From positions 1 through 64,000 of the forward strand of contig NZ_KB903292.1 of NCBI RefSeq assembly GCF_000379685.1: DNA of 64,000 nucleotides, written 5' to 3'. Shown in pieces: positions 6,588 to 28,017 of the stretch (positions are counted from its first letter, which is position 1; each line of letters starts with the position of its first letter). A model generated the notes under the pieces. That model was not told the origin of the DNA and searched no databases. It saw only the letters and a program-made list of their open reading frames with translations. This DNA comes from Catelliglobosispora koreensis DSM 44566 (lineage in GTDB: Bacteria > Actinomycetota > Actinomycetes > Mycobacteriales > Micromonosporaceae). The position numbers and the translations under genes were made by a program.

Positions 6588-7589
6588 TCAATCTGAGACC
6601 TGTAGGCGCAGCGTGAGCCAGTACTCGACGACGGAGTTCGGCGGGACAGGGGAGTTGGGCGCAGGCTCCACCGCTATCGACTCGAATCCGCATATCTGGC
6701 CCGCGACGCTAATGAGAAGGACGTCGCTCGTCCTGCCGGTTTCCGCTCCGCCGCTGTCGAGGCTGACGGCATAGCAGAGCCGGCCTGCCCGGTCGGTAAC
6801 GATGCCCCGCCAGGCGAGGCCCGGAATGCCGGCCAGGACGGTGAGGACCGCGACGCGCTGGCCGACGCGCAGGTAGTGGATCCGTGAGACGTCGGCAAGG
6901 GCGCGCAGGATCGCTTGTGGCCCATTGGAACGTGGCTGGTGTTTGTCCAGCTGCGACTCGAGCTGTCCGGCATCGGCTGACGGCGTTCCGTTGAGGAGGT
7001 CGGAAAATTCACCGGGCCCGTACATGATGGGGACGGTCTGGGAGCCTGAGGGAAGAGCGTCAAGGTACTGCACTGTTTTGCTGCCGGGCGTCTGTGGTGG
7101 AAGCGCGGTTTGCAGCTCCTTGCCCGAGCGGTCTTGATGCCACCAGAGTTTGACGTCATTGGCCACGAATCCGTCTGGGTGGATCGTGTCCGCGGTCCAC
7201 TCCTGGCGGTGCACATAGGTGGTGCCGCCGTTGACGGTGGCATCCGGCTGCTGACGCACGGCCCGGATGAGATCTTGCAGATGGCTGGCGGCTGGTGTCG
7301 CGGGTTCTGCCGTGTCCATGTCGAGACGGCCCGGACCGGCGTACGCGGGCGAGGAGGCTCCGAAGTAGACAGTGGCCACAGTCGCGACTATCCCTGCCGC
7401 TCCACCGGTTAGGGCAAGCCGCCTCGTGAAAGATATGGCATACCAAGGCTTTCTGAGCCGGCCTCGTGCCTCGGCGACCACACGCATTTGCTCGGGTGTC
7501 AGAGTCGGCGGTGGCACTTCCTTGCCATAAGCGGGATTACGTGCATCCATGACATGCTGGAGGAGGTCATCATTGATGTGGCCCGTCAC
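6588..7589 (-). CDS. CU044_5270-type membrane-anchored protein paired with a sigma factor
   Basis: 333 residues. An N-terminal cytosolic part with TLTPEQMRVVAEARGRL is followed by one membrane helix (about 56-77) and a large extracellular domain containing the DV..IHYLRVGQRVAVLTVLAGIPG-type segment typical of actinobacterial CU044_5270 proteins. These sit next to ECF-like sigma genes and are assumed to be membrane sensors or anti-sigma-like partners. Its start overlaps the stop of the sigma gene by 4 nt (ATGA), so the two are co-translated. It has no zinc-finger motif of classical anti-sigma factors. Confidence 0.7.
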   Translation of the reverse strand: MTGHINDDLLQHVMDARNPAYGKEVPPPTLTPEQMRVVAEARGRLRKPWYAISFTRRLALTGGAAGIVATVATVYFGASSPAYAGPGRLDMDTAEPATPAASHLQDLIRAVRQQPDATVNGGTTYVHRQEWTADTIHPDGFVANDVKLWWHQDRSGKELQTALPPQTPGSKTVQYLDALPSGSQTVPIMYGPGEFSDLLNGTPSADAGQLESQLDKHQPRSNGPQAILRALADVSRIHYLRVGQRVAVLTVLAGIPGLAWRGIVTDRAGRLCYAVSLDSGGAETGRTSDVLLISVAGQICGFESIAVEPAPNSPVPPNSVVEYWLTLRLQVSD

Positions 7590-8236
7590 TTCGGCTCCTC
7601 CTTCGAGCGTAGGTGTTCTTCAAGGATCGCGGTGGCTTTCACCCGGGCTCGTGACAGCCGTTTGCGGGCGGTGGCGGGGCGTAGGTTGAGGTGCGCGGCG
7701 ATCTCATTGGTGTCAAGCTGGTGCTCGTAATAGAGCTCAAGCAGTTCAATATCGTTGGGGTGCAAGCGGTCCAGCTGCCCGCAGAGCTCAAGGCTTGGCT
7801 CATCGAACATCGCGTCCGCTGGCGGCTGCGGATTCAAATGAGCCATGGTGTCGGGGTCATATTCTTGGTGCGGCTGGTTGCGGTGCGCCCGAAGGTAATT
7901 GCTCAGGTGAAACTTGGCGGTCGTTATCAACCAGGGATAGGGTTCTTCCGGGACGGCATCAGATTTGCGCCATGCGGTGATCAGAGTTTCTTGAGCTAGG
8001 TCGCGTGCGGTAGCCATGTCGCCGCGGAGTTTGCTGGCAAGCACCTTCGCGATCCTTTCGAAATATTCCTTGACGAGCGCGTTGTGCCACGCGTCGTCGC
8101 GCACCCTTTCGCTTGCCAAGAGCAGCTCTCCTACACCTTCGTCCGCGGAGCTAGTGGTGATGTTCTGCACACGGTGAGTACCGCTATTGATGAGATGTCG
8201 CTGGCGGCCCGGCTGTGTGACATCAGGAAATGACAA
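7586..8236 (-). CDS. ECF-like RNA polymerase sigma factor
   Basis: About 216 residues. Region 2 is visible as DLAQETLITAWRK plus PYPWLITTAKFHLSNYLR, and region 4 as LHPNDIELLELYYEHQLDTNEIAAHLNL, then a recognition helix with RPATARKRLSRAR. It should direct RNA polymerase to a small set of promoters, with its activity set by the co-translated membrane partner. The listed TTG start at 8236 lies inside a perfect palindrome (8231-8243), so a start further in (for example GTG near 8170) may be real. Confidence 0.8.
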   Translation of the reverse strand: MSFPDVTQPGRQRHLINSGTHRVQNITTSSADEGVGELLLASERVRDDAWHNALVKEYFERIAKVLASKLRGDMATARDLAQETLITAWRKSDAVPEEPYPWLITTAKFHLSNYLRAHRNQPHQEYDPDTMAHLNPQPPADAMFDEPSLELCGQLDRLHPNDIELLELYYEHQLDTNEIAAHLNLRPATARKRLSRARVKATAILEEHLRSKEEPK

Positions 8237-19954: not shown

Positions 19955-21529
19955 ATGCGTGTATTACGTTTCGCCGGCATTCTCGCGGCGGCTGTCCTGG
20001 TGACAGCGAACCCCGCCGTGGCCGAACCACGGCGCGCCGATGGCGTAACGGTTACCGACTCGGCCGGAAACGTGACGGGAATCGTTGCGGCGGAAGGACA
20101 ATCGCTGCGCGCGGGCAATGGCGACGCCAGCACTCACCTCCAGGCTTACGCCCGGCGGTTTGGCGTCAACGCCAAGGACTTCACGGTTGAGCGCGTGACC
20201 GAGCTGCCGGGTGGCAGTGCGGTCCGGTTCCAGCAGCGGGCGGGCGGCGTTCCGGTGCTGGGCGCGCAATTGGTTGCGGTGCTTGATAAATCCGGCAGTC
20301 TGCAGTCATTGCACGGCAACGTGTCGGCGGTGAGCAACCGCCTGGCCAACGCGGGCAAGAAGGCCGCGGACGTGCGCGGTCGCGCGGGCCGGGTTTTCGC
20401 CGCCGAGGCGCAAATCGCGGTGGAGGACCTTGAGGAAGCCGAACCGCAGCTCGCCTGGTTTGACTCGGCGATCTGGAATGGCGTCCCGTCAAAGGGCAAC
20501 GTCCGGCTCGTGTGGTCGGTCAAGGTGGAGCCCACGTCACTGGCCGGCTGGGGTGGCCAGATCCTTTACGACGCCCACTCTGGTGCTGAAGTGCTCAAGC
20601 TGAGCCACAAGCACGAGATCAACCGGGCGATCTGTGACGCCAACACCACCAACGTCACGACGAGCGCGATCTGCCTGTCCAAGAATGCTAAGCGTCTTGA
20701 GGGCAGCCCGGTTTCGTCCGTGCTCGATGTCAACCAGGCCTTCGACTACTTTGGCGCCACGTCGTCTTACTACCAGAGCAACTTTGGTTACGACCTCACG
20801 GCGAACATCGGGTCAACGGGCAAGGGCGACAACACCCGCCGGCTGCGTGCCATCGTGCGCGCTTGTGTGCCGGGCTACGGCTGCCCGATGCAGAACGCTT
20901 TCTGGAACGGCAAGGGCATGACCTTCGGTCCTGGCTTCGCCTCGGCCGATGACGTGGTCGGGCACGAGCTGACGCACGGTGTCACCGAGCACACGTCCGG
21001 CCTGACCTACTCCAGCCAGAGCGGTGCCATCAACGAGGCGCTGTCGGACATTTTCGGCGAGTTCACGGACCTGACCGACGGCATGGGCAACGACACCGCC
21101 AGCGTGCGCTGGGACATGGGCGAGGACCTGCCCGCGTCGATCGGTGTCATCCGCAGCATGTCCGACCCGACCCGGTTCTCCGACCCGGACAAGGTGTCGA
21201 GCAGCCTGTGGTACACGGGCACGAGCAACTCGGCCTACGTGCACATCAACTCCGGCGTCGGCAACAAGGCGGCGTACCTCATGGTGGATGGTGGCACTTT
21301 CAACGGTCAGACCATCAGCGGTCTGGGCCTGGCGAAGGCCGCACAGATCTGGTGGCGTGCGCAGAACACGCTGACGTCCTCGGCCACCTACAAGGAGCTG
21401 GCCACCGTGCTTCCGGCCAGCTGCCGGGCTCTGGTGACCGCTGGCATCGGTGGGCTGACGAGCGCTGACTGTGCCCAGGTCGACAAGGTCGTGCTGGCAA
21501 CCGAAATGAACCTCACCCCGGCGGGTTGA
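19955..21529 (+). CDS. Secreted M4 (thermolysin-like) metalloprotease
   Basis: 524 residues from an ATG with GGGAGGAG 6 nt upstream. Signal peptide to about 24. A FTP/PepSY-type propeptide (about 35-210) contains RFQQRAGGVPVLGAQLVAVLD. The catalytic domain has the zinc motif H337-E338-L-T-H341 and the third ligand Glu361 in GAINEALSD, spaced 23 residues as in thermolysin. His424-region HINSGVGNKAAYL supplies the transition-state His. It is exported, self-processed and degrades protein. No P-domain or PPC tail. Confidence 0.92.
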   Translation: MRVLRFAGILAAAVLVTANPAVAEPRRADGVTVTDSAGNVTGIVAAEGQSLRAGNGDASTHLQAYARRFGVNAKDFTVERVTELPGGSAVRFQQRAGGVPVLGAQLVAVLDKSGSLQSLHGNVSAVSNRLANAGKKAADVRGRAGRVFAAEAQIAVEDLEEAEPQLAWFDSAIWNGVPSKGNVRLVWSVKVEPTSLAGWGGQILYDAHSGAEVLKLSHKHEINRAICDANTTNVTTSAICLSKNAKRLEGSPVSSVLDVNQAFDYFGATSSYYQSNFGYDLTANIGSTGKGDNTRRLRAIVRACVPGYGCPMQNAFWNGKGMTFGPGFASADDVVGHELTHGVTEHTSGLTYSSQSGAINEALSDIFGEFTDLTDGMGNDTASVRWDMGEDLPASIGVIRSMSDPTRFSDPDKVSSSLWYTGTSNSAYVHINSGVGNKAAYLMVDGGTFNGQTISGLGLAKAAQIWWRAQNTLTSSATYKELATVLPASCRALVTAGIGGLTSADCAQVDKVVLATEMNLTPAG

Positions 21530-21547
21530 TCCATCCGCCCAGTGAAA

Positions 21548-21592
21548 GCGCCGGGGTCTGCTCGTGGGGAGCAGACCCCGGCGCCCTTTTTT
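21548..21592 (+). terminator. Strong rho-independent terminator
   Basis: 16-bp perfect stem GCGCCGGGGTCTGCTC / GAGCAGACCCCGGCGC, loop GTGGG, followed by CC and six T. It ends the M4 protease transcript 19 nt after the stop. Confidence 0.9.
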
Positions 21593-21676
21593 GTCACAGA
21601 AACTTTTCCCGCTGACCGTAATGGCAGGCCTCGCTGACGTACCTACTATCGAACTCATCTCACCCCGGAGGCAGCA

Positions 21677-22993
21677 ATGAGGTCGGACGTCACCTTGGCA
21701 CGCGCGGCGAAAGCCGGGGACCGTGATGCCTTTGAGGCGCTTTATCTCCGCCACCGCCTCGCGATGTATGGCCTGGTGCTGCGCCAGGTGGGCAACCATC
21801 ACGCGGCCGAGGACATCGTGCAGGAGTGTTTCCTGGCAGCCTGGCGTGACCTGGAAAAACTGCGTGATCCGGCCGCGGTGAAGACGTGGCTGTTTTCCAT
21901 CGCCTATCGTCAATCGCTCAGTTATGCCAGCCGTCACGTGGCGCTGCCACTGGCCGAATTCCCCGATCTGCCCGACGATGAGGTCTCGCGCCGCCCGGAG
22001 ACCGCTGCTGAGCGGCGGGAAGCTCGTGAGCTCGTGTGGAGTGCCGCCCTCGGCCTAGAGCCGCGTCAGCGAGCAGTGCTTGAACTTTCCGTGCGGTGGG
22101 AGCTTTCCAGTAGTGAGATCGGTGAGGTGCTCGGCGTGGGCCGCGCCCATGCCGCCGTGCTCGTGCACCGTTCCCGCTCGGCCCTGGGCAACGCGATCAA
22201 GGCGATGCTCGTGGCCCGCCAGCGCCAGCGCTGCCACGGACTTTCCAAACTCCTTGGGGGTACTCATCGTGAGCTCTCCAGGGGCCAGCGCTCCAGCGTC
22301 GACCACCATATTCGCCGTTGCCCCGACTGTCAGCGGTTGAGCCGCAACCTCGCTTCGTTTGCCCCGCTGGCATTGTTGCTAGGCAAACCCGGCGGAGCGA
22401 CCGCGACTGTCCACAGTGGATGGATGCTCAAACTTGGCGCGGCAGCGGCGAGCGTTGCCGTCGGGACGATCGCCTACGCCGCCGACGATCCGCCTGTTGT
22501 CGTGGGCACGCCGGCCTCGCAGCACCCCATCGCATCGGCGCCGGTTTCGCCGTCCGCCTCGCCTTCGGCCTCACCGTCAGCTTCGCCAACGCCAAGTCCA
22601 TTGCCGTCGAATCTGTCGCCCGAGGCGCAAATGGTCGTGCTGATCAACGAGGTGCGGGCCGCCGCCGGGTGCAATCCCGTTGCCGCGAACGCACTGTTGG
22701 CCAAGGCAGCCGAGGCACACAGCGCGGACATGGCGGCCAATAGCTACTTCTCGCACCAATCACAGGACGGCCGATCGCCGTGGGACCGGGCCAAGAGTGC
22801 CGGATATCAGTGGCCGTCAGCGGAAAACATCGCGGCTGGAAACGCGAGCGCGAAGGCGACCATGGATCAGTTCATGAACTCGCCCGGGCACAAGGCCAAC
22901 ATCCTGAACTGCGGCCACAAAGCTGTTGGGGTCGGGCGGGCGTCCGGAGGACCGTACCGTTATTACTGGACTCAGCTGTTTGGGTCCAGATAG
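21677..22993 (+). CDS. ECF sigma factor fused to zinc-finger, membrane helix and extracellular CAP domain
   Basis: 438 residues; GGAGGCAGCA before the ATG. In order: sigma region 2 (about 15-80, DIVQECFLAAWRDLEKL and WLFSIAYRQ), region 4 (about 118-165, ELSSSEIGEVLGVGRAHAAVLVHRSR by position), a zinc-finger anti-sigma-like HHIRRCPDC motif (about 208), one membrane helix (about 247-267), a Ser/Pro/Ala linker (about 280-305), and a CAP/SCP domain (about 312-438) with HSADMAANSYFSHQS, SAENIAAG and NSPGHKANILN. Sigma factor, its restraining domain and an outside sensor domain lie in one chain. Release would need proteolysis or a direct conformational signal. The end overlaps the DNA ligase gene by 22 nt (convergent). 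Confidence 0.85.
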   Translation: MRSDVTLARAAKAGDRDAFEALYLRHRLAMYGLVLRQVGNHHAAEDIVQECFLAAWRDLEKLRDPAAVKTWLFSIAYRQSLSYASRHVALPLAEFPDLPDDEVSRRPETAAERREARELVWSAALGLEPRQRAVLELSVRWELSSSEIGEVLGVGRAHAAVLVHRSRSALGNAIKAMLVARQRQRCHGLSKLLGGTHRELSRGQRSSVDHHIRRCPDCQRLSRNLASFAPLALLLGKPGGATATVHSGWMLKLGAAAASVAVGTIAYAADDPPVVVGTPASQHPIASAPVSPSASPSASPSASPTPSPLPSNLSPEAQMVVLINEVRAAAGCNPVAANALLAKAAEAHSADMAANSYFSHQSQDGRSPWDRAKSAGYQWPSAENIAAGNASAKATMDQFMNSPGHKANILNCGHKAVGVGRASGGPYRYYWTQLFGSR

Positions 22994-23937
22994 GACAGAC
23001 GCACATCCTTGGGCCGCTTGTCTATGCGCAGTCCTCGCCAGCTGGGATGGCGCATGGTCACATCCGGCGTCCAGTTGCGGAACTGCACCTCACCGACCAG
23101 CTTCGGCTTAGTCCAGTGCGCGTCGCGGGCATACATCTGCGGCACCGGGCGGCCGGTGACCACGGAGTCCGGGACCTCCAGCGGCTGAAGCTCTTTGAGT
23201 AAGTCGTCGAGCATGCGCTGGGTGAATCCGGTGCCCACAGCGCCGATGAACGAGAGCTGCTTGCCGTCGGGCTCGTGTGCCGCGAGCAGAAGCGAACCCA
23301 GGGTGCCTTCCCGCCGGCCCTCGCCCGGGCGCCAGCCAATGATGATGCCCTCCTGGGACTGGCTGATCGGCACCTTGATCCAGGACTTCGACCGGCGCCC
23401 CGGCTCATAGACCGAAGTGGACACCTTCGCCACGACGCCTTCAAGGCCATGCGTGCGCGCGGTTTCAAAGACGCTGGCTCCCGGTCCGTGAAACCGGGGC
23501 GACAACTGCATCAGGCCCTCGGCGAGCGGCAGGTCTTCCAGGGCCGCGCGCCGCTTCTCATAGGTCCAGCCGGTGGTTCGTTTGCCATCCAGGGCGAGCA
23601 GATCGAAGCAGTAGAACAGGACGGGCACCTTGGCCACCAACGCCGGCGAAGGAGTGCGCACGTGCATCCGCTGCTGCAGTTGGGAGAAGGAAGGCGCTCC
23701 GGTCGCGTCGAGCGCCACCAATTCACCGTCGAGTACGAGCTCACGCTGGCCGGTCTGGGCGGGCAGAGACTGTAGCTCCGGGTAGGACGCCGTGAAGTCA
23801 ATGTTGTTGCGGGATATGGCCTGCACGGTGCCGCCCTTGAGGCCGACGATCGCGCGCACGCCGTCCCACTTGAACTCATACTGCCACTGCTCGCCCTCAG
23901 GGAGGGGGCCAAGCGTAGCCAGCATCGGCAAGTCCAT
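22972..23937 (-). CDS. ATP-dependent DNA ligase (LigC / LigD-ligase type)
   Basis: 321 residues. Motif I E21-F-K23-W-D-G with the adenylated Lys23, motif III (FYCFDLLALDG), motif IV (LEGVVAK) and motif V (SWIKVP), followed by an OB-fold. The size and motifs fit the stand-alone ligase domain found in actinobacterial NHEJ-related ligases. No Ku or polymerase domain is next to it. It seals nicks using ATP, probably in accessory repair. Confidence 0.9.
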   Translation of the reverse strand: MDLPMLATLGPLPEGEQWQYEFKWDGVRAIVGLKGGTVQAISRNNIDFTASYPELQSLPAQTGQRELVLDGELVALDATGAPSFSQLQQRMHVRTPSPALVAKVPVLFYCFDLLALDGKRTTGWTYEKRRAALEDLPLAEGLMQLSPRFHGPGASVFETARTHGLEGVVAKVSTSVYEPGRRSKSWIKVPISQSQEGIIIGWRPGEGRREGTLGSLLLAAHEPDGKQLSFIGAVGTGFTQRMLDDLLKELQPLEVPDSVVTGRPVPQMYARDAHWTKPKLVGEVQFRNWTPDVTMRHPSWRGLRIDKRPKDVRLSYLDPNS

Positions 23938-25096: not shown

Positions 25097-25110
25097 ATTG
25101 GAAGGTGACC

Positions 25111-28017
25111 ATGCAGAGACGTCTAAGGTTCGCTGCGATGGCTAGCGCGTCAGCGCTGGTGGCGGCGACCCTCGTCGCAGGCAATCCTGCCCAGGCGGCA
25201 CCCACGCGTTACGAGGCCGAGACCGCGCCAGCGACGTGCGATGGGACCATCGACTCCAACCACACCGGGTTCTCCGGCACCGGATTCTGTAACGCGATGA
25301 ACGCCATTGGCGGCCAAGCACAGTGGACGGTCAGCGCGGCGAACGCGGGCACGGCCACGATCGCGATCCGCTATGCCAATGGCACCACGGCGAACCGTCC
25401 GGCGGACATCGCCGTCAACGGGACGGTCGTCCAGGCGGCCAGTGCCTTCAACCCCACTGGAGCCTGGACCACATGGGCGACGAAAACCCTTACCGCCCAA
25501 GTGAACGCGGGCACCAACACGATCCGCGTCACGGGCACCACCGCCACCGGCCCGGCCAACCTCGACTTCGTGGACTTTGAAGTCGCTCCTCCCCAGAACT
25601 TCACCGACTATCAGGCCGAAAGCGCTTCGATCGGCCAGGGGCTGGTCGAGTCCAACCACGCCGGTTTCACCGGCACCGGTTTCGTCAACTACGACAATGT
25701 CGTGGGGAGCTTTGTCGAGTTCACCGTGACGACGGCCGCGGCAGGCAACTATCCGCTGACGTTCCGCTTCGCCAACGGCACCACGATCGACCGGCCGATG
25801 GACATCACCGTCAACGGCCAGCCTTCCGCGCCAGGGCTTTCCTTCCCTGGTACTGGAGCGTGGACGACGTGGACGGAAAAGACCGTCACGGCATCACTAA
25901 ACGCGGGCTCGAACACTGTCAGGGCGACTGCGACGACGGTCAACGGCGGGCCGAACCTCGACCGGCTCAGGGCTTCCGTCCCCGCTGACGCCCAGCCGCC
26001 GACGGCACCCGGCAACCTCAGGCTGACCAGCCCGGCCCGTCCTTATGCGATGGACATCGCCTGGGACGCCTCAACCGACAACGTTGGCGTCGCGAGTTAC
26101 AAGATTTACAACGGCGGCAACGTGATCAAAGAGGTTGGCGGCAACATCCTGGCCACGACGCTCATCAACCTCACGCCAAACACGCGATACGTGCTCACGG
26201 TTCTCGCTCAGGACGCGGCCGGAAACGCTTCGCCCACAAGCAATAACCTTGACGTGACCACACCGCCGAGCGATGACCTCCAGCCGCCCACCGTCCCGGG
26301 CGGTCTGCGCTCGACGAGCATTCAGCCCACGAGCGTCTCGCTGGCCTGGAACGCGTCGACGGACAACATTGGCGTGCTGGGTTACCGGGTCTTCCGCAAC
26401 GGCACGCAGATCGCTGACGTGCCCGACCTCGTGGCCACGGACAGCGGGCTGACACCGGACACGACGTATAGCTACACCGTGCTGGCCTACGACGCCAACG
26501 CCAACGCCTCGGCGCAAAGCCCAGCGGTGGCGGTCAGGACGACCGTGGCTGGCGGCGGGGGCGATCCCGCGTTCGACCGCAATATCAATACGCAACTGGA
26601 TCTGCCGTGGGGCATCGGCTTCCTGCCGGACAACACTGCCCTCGTGGCCGAACGCGACCGGTTCGAGATCGTGCGTGTGACGCTCAGCGGCCAGAAGACC
26701 GTCCTGGGAACGATTTCCGAGGCGGTCACGACGACCGGAGAAGGTGGCCTGCTGGGGCTTGCCGTCTCACCGACGTTCTCCACGGACAACTACGTCTACG
26801 TCTACTACACGGCCGCCACTGACAGCCGGGTGTCGCGGTTCAAGCTCATCAACAACACCATTGGTGCCCGTGAGCCGATCGTGACTGGCATCGCCAAGAG
26901 CACCTTCCACAATGGAGGACGGCTTAAGTTTGGCCCGGACGGGTTCTTGTACATCACAACCGGTGACGCTCAGACGAGCAGCCGGGCGCAGAACCTCAGC
27001 TCGCTCAACGGAAAGATCCTGCGCGTGACGGCCACGGGCGATCCCGCTCCGGGCAACCCGTTCGGCACGAGGATCTACAGCTATGGTCATCGCAACGTTC
27101 AGGGCATCGCCTGGGACTCCCAGGGCCGCCTTTGGGCGTCAGAGTTCGGCAACAGCACCTGGGACGAACTCAACCGGATCCAGTCCGGCGGCAACTACGG
27201 CTGGCCGACCTGTGAAGGCTCTTGCGGCACAACAGGGATGATTAACCCGGTCCGGCAATGGGATGTCGCTTCGGCCTCACCGAGTGGCCTTGAGATCGTC
27301 AACGATTTCATCTACATGGCAGCGGTCCGTGGGGCACGCCTGTGGGTCATGAAGATCACCGGGGCGAACTCTACTGATACCCCCAGAGCGTTTTTCAATG
27401 GCACTTGGGGACGACTGCGCACGGTCGTGAAGTCACCCGACGGCGGCCTGTGGCTGACGTCGACGAACAACGACAAGAGTGGCGGCACGCCAACGGTTTT
27501 GAACAACGTCATCGTGCGGCTCAAGTTCGCGCTTACGCTGACGAGCACCGCGTTTGGCCACGGCGGCAACATCCCGGCCAAGTACACCTGCGCCAACGAT
27601 GGGGTGTCCGGCAACGACATTTCCCCGCCGCTGGCGTGGATGGGCGATCCGGGTGCTGGTGCGCAGAGCTATGCCATCACCTTCATTGACACCGCCAACA
27701 GCGGCAAGCATTGGGTGATCTGGGATATCCCAGCCGCTCGCAGTTCACTGCCGGAAGGTTTGGGGCTCGGCTTTGACGTGCCGGGACAGTCACCGGCCAA
27801 GCAACGCTCGTTTGGCACCGGGAACAAGACCTACCAGTTCTTTGGCCCGTGCCCAGGGGGCTCGAATCACTTGTACCAGTTCAAGATTTACGCCTTGAAT
27901 GTGGCGACGTTGCCCGGGGTGAACTCCAGCTCCACGGTCGCGCAAGTCGAGACGGCGATCCTCGCCAACGACATCAGCAGCGCGATTCTCAACGGCAACT
28001 CCAACGCGTCAACGTAA
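25111..28017 (+). CDS. Secreted PQQ-type sugar dehydrogenase with two CBMs, two Fn3 and a PEBP domain
   Basis: 968 residues; GGAAGG 6 nt before the ATG. Order: signal peptide (1-31), CBM6/35-type modules (about 33-158 and 165-290), two fibronectin type III domains (about 294-386, 390-478), a GSDH/soluble aldose dehydrogenase six-bladed propeller (about 490-805), and a PEBP/YbhB domain (about 808-960). The propeller has His600 in HNGGRLKFGPDG, the usual catalytic base, Arg661-Asn662 in GHRN, and E..G....DELN.I..GGNYGWP, all part of the PQQ/Ca site in this family. It should oxidise an aldose at C1 to a lactone while bound to polysaccharide. It is comparable to CAZy AA12 pyranose dehydrogenases. 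pqq genes are in the same window and share its operator. The PEBP fusion is odd. Confidence 0.88.
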   Translation: MQRRLRFAAMASASALVAATLVAGNPAQAAPTRYEAETAPATCDGTIDSNHTGFSGTGFCNAMNAIGGQAQWTVSAANAGTATIAIRYANGTTANRPADIAVNGTVVQAASAFNPTGAWTTWATKTLTAQVNAGTNTIRVTGTTATGPANLDFVDFEVAPPQNFTDYQAESASIGQGLVESNHAGFTGTGFVNYDNVVGSFVEFTVTTAAAGNYPLTFRFANGTTIDRPMDITVNGQPSAPGLSFPGTGAWTTWTEKTVTASLNAGSNTVRATATTVNGGPNLDRLRASVPADAQPPTAPGNLRLTSPARPYAMDIAWDASTDNVGVASYKIYNGGNVIKEVGGNILATTLINLTPNTRYVLTVLAQDAAGNASPTSNNLDVTTPPSDDLQPPTVPGGLRSTSIQPTSVSLAWNASTDNIGVLGYRVFRNGTQIADVPDLVATDSGLTPDTTYSYTVLAYDANANASAQSPAVAVRTTVAGGGGDPAFDRNINTQLDLPWGIGFLPDNTALVAERDRFEIVRVTLSGQKTVLGTISEAVTTTGEGGLLGLAVSPTFSTDNYVYVYYTAATDSRVSRFKLINNTIGAREPIVTGIAKSTFHNGGRLKFGPDGFLYITTGDAQTSSRAQNLSSLNGKILRVTATGDPAPGNPFGTRIYSYGHRNVQGIAWDSQGRLWASEFGNSTWDELNRIQSGGNYGWPTCEGSCGTTGMINPVRQWDVASASPSGLEIVNDFIYMAAVRGARLWVMKITGANSTDTPRAFFNGTWGRLRTVVKSPDGGLWLTSTNNDKSGGTPTVLNNVIVRLKFALTLTSTAFGHGGNIPAKYTCANDGVSGNDISPPLAWMGDPGAGAQSYAITFIDTANSGKHWVIWDIPAARSSLPEGLGLGFDVPGQSPAKQRSFGTGNKTYQFFGPCPGGSNHLYQFKIYALNVATLPGVNSSSTVAQVETAILANDISSAILNGNSNAST

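What the first reader, a model, noticed from the sequence alone, without database searches (positions are those of the whole stretch)
21677..22993. Sigma factor, zinc-finger, membrane helix and extracellular CAP domain in one polypeptide
The chain reads sigma2, sigma4, HxxxCxxC motif, membrane helix, Ser/Pro linker, CAP domain. A CAP domain as the outside sensor physically joined to its sigma factor would make a one-protein transmembrane transcription switch. Sigma factors with C-terminal extensions are known in some ECF groups. I cannot tell whether this exact combination is described.
Basis: partly seen in the sequence, partly recalled or inferred. Interest (0 to 1): 0.6.

Follow-up and report, generated by a model that had tools for sequence, protein, structure and literature searches.

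The report
Membrane-tethered sigma factor with CAP sensor
This actinobacterium makes one protein that joins a gene-switching sigma factor, its own built-in brake, a membrane anchor and an outward-facing CAP domain; the general layout is known, but CAP as the outer part appears undescribed and seems to have been recruited at least twice.

Summary
Window 21677-22993 (+) is one 438-aa frame: sigma2, sigma4, a ZAS anti-sigma zinc motif (C186, H211, C215, C218), a weak membrane helix, a Ser/Pro linker and a CAP domain (PF00188, E 3e-24). It is no frameshift: five orthologues in two other Micromonosporaceae genera (55-64% identity) keep the whole chain in one frame. The gene stands alone behind a terminator, with a conserved upstream element, GTAATGG-N16/17-ACCTACT, found before all six genes and before no other gene.

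The chassis sigma-ZAS-TM-outer domain is known (ECF48/52/53; SCO4117) and common here: 45 fusions carry CAP, AbfB, hydrolase, beta-helix or unassigned outer parts. CAP sits on two distant sigma clades (one clade rejected, p-AU 0.001). The second, also in Streptomyces, Kitasatospora and Embleya, often has a separate CAP gene next door.

Most likely it is a one-protein transmembrane switch: CAP senses an envelope-related or secreted ligand, proteolysis frees the sigma part, which activates at least its own promoter. Ligand, protease and targets are inferred. Verdict: new variant of a known kind.

The parts
21548..21592 (+). Intrinsic terminator (16-pair stem plus T run) behind the upstream M4 protease gene; isolates the sigma-CAP gene
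   Evidence: sequence
21618..21647 (+). Conserved promoter-like element GTAATGG-N16-ACCTACT, 59 nt before the ATG
   Evidence: present upstream of all six orthologues; exact copy once per genome in G000, G016 and G061; 0 of 5000 shuffles give two shared 7-mers in register
21667..21671 (+). Ribosome-binding site GGAGG
   Evidence: sequence
21677..22993 (+). Sigma-ZAS-TM-CAP gene, 438 aa, single frame
21740..21934 (+). Sigma-70 region 2 (residues 22-86)
   Evidence: PF04542 E 1.3e-13
22031..22186 (+). Sigma-70 region 4 (residues 119-170)
   Evidence: PF08281 E 1.5e-5, just under curated cut-off
22232..22330 (+). ZAS zinc-ligand set C186, H211, C215, C218 (built-in anti-sigma motif)
   Evidence: four residues invariant in 45 fusions; zf-HC2 only 0.0097
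22421..22486 (+). Membrane helix, Ala-rich and short (about residues 249-270), ending in AYA-A, a possible signal-peptidase site
   Evidence: sequence; hydropathy; alignment
22487..22621 (+). Ser/Pro-rich linker (residues 271-315), presumed extracytoplasmic
   Evidence: sequence; length varies in orthologues
22640..22981 (+). CAP domain (residues 322-435) with conserved H348, H360, E383, H405 and cysteine pair C332/C412
   Evidence: PF00188 E 3.1e-24; residue conservation

Best explanation
The protein is a single-chain transmembrane transcription switch. The N-terminal ECF sigma factor lies in the cytoplasm and is held inactive by the ZAS anti-sigma segment that follows it (motif shown; inhibition inferred). 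A helix anchors the chain with the CAP domain outside on a Ser/Pro linker (topology inferred from domain order, conserved cysteine pair and linker). The CAP domain binds an envelope-related or secreted ligand (inferred). Binding, or loss of it, exposes the juxtamembrane part to a site-1 protease and then an intramembrane protease, freeing the sigma-ZAS part, whose ZAS is inactivated or degraded (inferred from SCO4117 and from sigma-V/RsiV). The freed sigma factor drives its own gene from the conserved GTAATGG-N16/17-ACCTACT element (element shown; recognition by this sigma inferred), amplifying the response. Other targets, if any, use a less strict promoter.
For: Domains in order in one frame; five full-length orthologues in two other genera; ZAS ligand set invariant in 45 fusions; CAP residues H348/H360/E383/H405 and the cysteine pair invariant in all 21 fused CAP domains of both clades, so the domain is maintained as a working CAP; conserved element directly upstream of the gene, behind a terminator, with no conserved neighbour gene, as expected for autoregulation; CAP joined to two separate sigma clades, and in the second clade a stand-alone CAP gene adjoins the fused gene in five of 12 loci, plus one with a weak CAP, which suggests that sigma and CAP biology are linked. 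Precedents: SCO4117 cut down to its sigma part is active and autoregulates (PMC5826349); RsiV is cut by signal peptidase on ligand binding (PMC6066255).
Against: No experiment on any sigma-CAP protein. The helix here is weakly hydrophobic. The AYA-A site is absent in one of three lineages, so signal peptidase cannot be the general site-1 protease. The element has no second convincing copy in the genomes (hits with up to 2 mismatches are fewer than those of the reversed-pattern control), so no wider regulon is visible, and its boxes do not resemble the usual ECF boxes GGAAC and CGTC (general knowledge). The two-row structure model was poor (mean pLDDT 48), so sigma-ZAS contact was not tested.
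Confidence: 0.6

Rival explanations
1. CAP is an anchor or docking part rather than the signal receptor: it holds the protein to peptidoglycan or to a partner, and the signal is membrane or wall stress acting on helix and linker.
For: The lipoprotein DalA of Rhodobacter, whose NCBIfam model matches this CAP (NF052539, E 7e-15, far below that model's cut-off), binds peptidoglycan non-covalently (PMC10470522). Related chassis carry other wall- or glycan-type domains: AbfB, glycoside hydrolase, beta-helix.
Against: The four pocket residues are invariant in all 21 fused CAP domains, more than simple anchoring seems to need; a stand-alone CAP gene lies beside several fused genes of the second clade.
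Confidence: 0.25
2. The switch is cytoplasmic: the C-H-C-C zinc site of the ZAS part senses oxidants as in RsrA, and the membrane and CAP parts only set location.
For: Ligand set C186-x24-H211-x3-C215-x2-C218 has RsrA-type spacing (RsrA from general knowledge) and is invariant in 45 fusions.
Against: Does not explain a CAP domain under purifying selection or the exchange of outer domains on one chassis.
Confidence: 0.12
3. The helix works as an internal signal peptide: signal peptidase cuts at AYA-A constitutively, CAP is secreted, and sigma activity is not tied to it.
For: Short Ala-rich helix followed by AYA-A in this species and in both Hamadaea-group sequences.
Against: The site is altered in the third lineage (VYALMPP, VYVLTPP, VYVLMPP), and there the helix is clearly hydrophobic. 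The fused arrangement is kept in all six genes.
Confidence: 0.12
4. A sequencing or assembly error joins two genes.
For: None found.
Against: Six species share the same continuous frame.
Confidence: 0.01

Closest known systems
ECF52 sigma factors, SCO4117 of Streptomyces coelicolor (PMC5826349)
   Same: ECF sigma, zinc finger, membrane helix, Pro-rich stretch and an extracytoplasmic domain in one chain; proposed release by proteolysis; autoregulation
   Different: Outer domain is a carbohydrate-binding module (smart00776), not CAP; group assignment of the sigma part could not be tested
ECF48 and ECF53 groups (PMC8999054, PMC10766802)
   Same: Sigma fused to a ZAS-type, membrane-spanning regulatory extension in Actinobacteria; some with glycoside hydrolase or carbohydrate-binding parts
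   Different: A CAP outer domain is not mentioned in the reviews read
IutY of Pseudomonas putida (ECF243; PMC8999054)
   Same: Sigma and membrane anti-sigma fused; activated by regulated proteolysis
   Different: Gram-negative siderophore system, no CAP, other partner proteins
Sigma-V/RsiV of Bacillus subtilis (PMC6066255)
   Same: Extracellular ligand-binding domain controls signal-peptidase and site-2 cleavage of a membrane anti-sigma
   Different: Two separate proteins; the ligand domain binds lysozyme and is not a CAP
Bacterial CAP proteins: YkwD family, DalA (PMC10470522)
   Same: Related CAP domain, extracytoplasmic
   Different: Stand-alone secreted or lipid-anchored proteins without a sigma factor

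Membership tests
ECF sigma factors (group IV sigma-70) | Sigma2 and sigma4 present, no sigma1 or sigma3 | tested here: met
   PF04542 above cut-off, PF08281 0.7 bit below cut-off; TIGR02937 73.7 bits against cut-off 42.9
ZAS anti-sigma domain | H/C-x24/25-H-x3-C-x2-C zinc ligands after the sigma part | tested here: met
   C186, H211, C215, C218; invariant in 45 sequences. The profile zf-HC2 itself is below cut-off
ZAS anti-sigma domain | Binds and inhibits the sigma factor | not testable with these tools
   structure model too poor; needs experiment
ECF52 | ECF sigma, zinc finger, TM, Pro-rich extension in one chain | tested here: met
   TM weak in this species
ECF52 | Extracytoplasmic carbohydrate-binding module | tested here: not met
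   CAP in its place; no carbohydrate-binding model matches
ECF48/52/53 | Sigma part falls in the group by phylogeny or group HMM | not tested
   group models and classification papers not held
CAP superfamily (PF00188) | Profile match with conserved pocket residues | tested here: met
   E 3.1e-24; H348, H360, E383, H405 conserved
Regulated intramembrane proteolysis substrates | Signal-dependent site-1 and site-2 cleavage | not testable with these tools
   needs experiment

The most novel reading that the evidence does not exclude
CAP domains act as receptors of transmembrane transcription switches in Actinobacteria, recruited at least twice onto a modular sigma-ZAS-TM chassis whose outer domain is exchanged to change the signal; the clade in this window is an autoregulated switch that stands alone in the genome.
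Probability: 0.5. Interest if true: 0.7.

Novelty: new variant of a known kind. Interest (0 to 1): 0.52.

Why it matters
What bacterial CAP domains bind is largely unknown. A CAP domain wired directly to a sigma factor would turn ligand discovery into a reporter assay: express the protein, add candidate wall or secreted compounds, read the promoter. The repeated exchange of outer domains on one sigma-ZAS-TM chassis also suggests a natural modular sensor platform in Actinobacteria.

Tried and rejected
Structure prediction on a two-row alignment (mean pLDDT 48) was too poor to use, so no fold search was run. Regulon search: exact and up to 2-mismatch copies of the element gave no second convincing site; such hits are fewer than those of the reversed-pattern control, and the one 1-mismatch hit (G000:C7:155479-155508) is not followed by a start codon at the expected distance. 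Functional link to the neighbouring M4 protease and DNA ligase genes: rejected, since neither is conserved beside orthologues. Internal start for a separate CAP product: rejected, not conserved. The Desulfotomaculaceae hit L039 looked like a fusion but is a protein of three CAP domains without sigma. Larger family protein searches failed for technical reasons, so the count of orthologues rests on the promoter-pattern search of 301 genomes and on 60-genome searches, and is a lower bound.

Full report
Observation. The frame 21677-22993 (+) encodes 438 residues with sigma2 (22-86), sigma4 (119-170), the zinc motif, a helix, a Ser/Pro linker and CAP (322-435). The nearest solved CAP structure by sequence is 4ifa. 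A good ribosome-binding site precedes the ATG, and a 16-pair terminator (21548-21592) separates the gene from the M4 protease gene upstream.

One frame, not two genes. Orthologues of full length were found in a Hamadaea MAG (L038, 64%), in G104 of the same genus (63%) and in G016, G149 and G161 of another genus (55%). All keep the whole chain in one frame while the linker changes length. Against L038, mismatches at codon positions 1, 2, 3 are 0.22, 0.17, 0.49 in sigma and 0.18, 0.17, 0.49 in CAP, the mark of selection on both parts. The internal ATG at codon 250 is not shared.

Membrane helix. In this species it is short and Ala-rich, below 1.6 mean hydropathy, while orthologues reach 1.95-2.09. 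It ends in AYA-A in three of six sequences, a possible signal-peptidase site, altered in the others. Topology is therefore inferred with less certainty here than in its relatives.

Built-in anti-sigma part. C186, H211, C215 and C218 match the ZAS ligand spacing and are four of only seven residues invariant in 45 fused proteins.

Own promoter. GTAATGG-N16/17-ACCTACT begins 58-61 nt before the ATG in all six orthologues. These are the only 7-mers shared by the three lineages in the last 100 nt, and 0 of 5000 dinucleotide shuffles gave such a pair in register. G000, G016 and the Hamadaea MAG hold it once each, before this gene. Of 301 family genomes 11 hold the looser pattern (CCTACT, spacer 14-18), and the six sigma-CAP genes account for every hit that has the full ACCTACT box at 16-17 nt; the remaining hits are fewer than those of the reversed control. 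Up to two mismatches reveal no regulon. No neighbour gene is conserved.

A common chassis with exchangeable outer domains. The same genome holds further sigma-ZAS fusions (L003, L004, L005, L006). Across family and order, 45 were collected: 10 with AbfB, 8 with CAP, 7 with beta-helix, 5 with a glycoside hydrolase core, others without a Pfam match. This agrees with reviews of ECF48/52/53.

On the sigma-ZAS tree the CAP fusions form two clades in different parts of the tree; one clade is rejected (p-AU 0.004 with 45 rows; 0.001 with 55 rows). On the CAP tree the clade of this window groups among stand-alone CAPs of the same family and order, whereas the second clade lies apart and mixes with its own neighbouring stand-alone CAPs (few columns, deep forks weak). 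An old CAP fusion followed by many domain exchanges would look similar, so 'twice' counts changes on the tree, not proven gains.

Second clade. It occurs in G007 and G025 of this family, in three further genomes of the class (L191, L201, L202) and on large replicons of Streptomyces, Kitasatospora and Embleya, where annotated only as sigma-70 family RNA polymerase sigma factor. Stand-alone CAP genes lie next to it in L145, L205, L206, L207 and L208, and a weaker CAP in L209, out of 12 loci examined. None lies near the six genes of the first clade within the stretches read.

How it works. By analogy with SCO4117, whose isolated sigma part is active and autoregulates (PMC5826349), and with RsiV (PMC6066255), CAP binding would trigger release of the sigma part. 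What CAP binds is open; peptidoglycan is one candidate, since DalA binds it (PMC10470522). The link of DalA to this CAP is an NCBIfam match far below that model's cut-off.

Novelty. Full-text searches for sigma factors with CAP or SCP domains found nothing, but the main classification papers were not available, so a prior mention cannot be excluded. I rate it a new variant of a known kind.

Noticed in passing
L205 1895-2869, L206 1179-2102, L207 2111-2755, L208 1313-2884, L145 2797-3618: Stand-alone CAP genes directly beside sigma-ZAS-TM-CAP genes of the second clade, in various orientations
   Followed up: partly
G000:C42:151312, C1:175141, C1:685310, C41:148453, C44:43858 (L003-L006, L215): At least five more sigma proteins with long C-terminal extensions in the same genome; outer parts mostly without an assigned domain
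   Followed up: partly
window 7586-8236 and 6588-7589 (-): Another ECF-type sigma factor gene followed by an overlapping 333-aa gene without Pfam match, a possible anti-sigma partner
   Followed up: no
window 25105-28017 (+): 970-aa protein joining carbohydrate-binding modules, fibronectin type III, glucose/sorbosone dehydrogenase and a phosphatidylethanolamine-binding domain
   Followed up: no
window 22972-23937 (-): Stand-alone ligase-domain gene of the NHEJ ligase type, whose 3' end overlaps the sigma-CAP gene by 22 bases; not conserved beside orthologues
   Followed up: yes
window 20813-21937 (-): 374-codon antisense open frame across the gene start, most likely a GC-rich shadow frame
   Followed up: no
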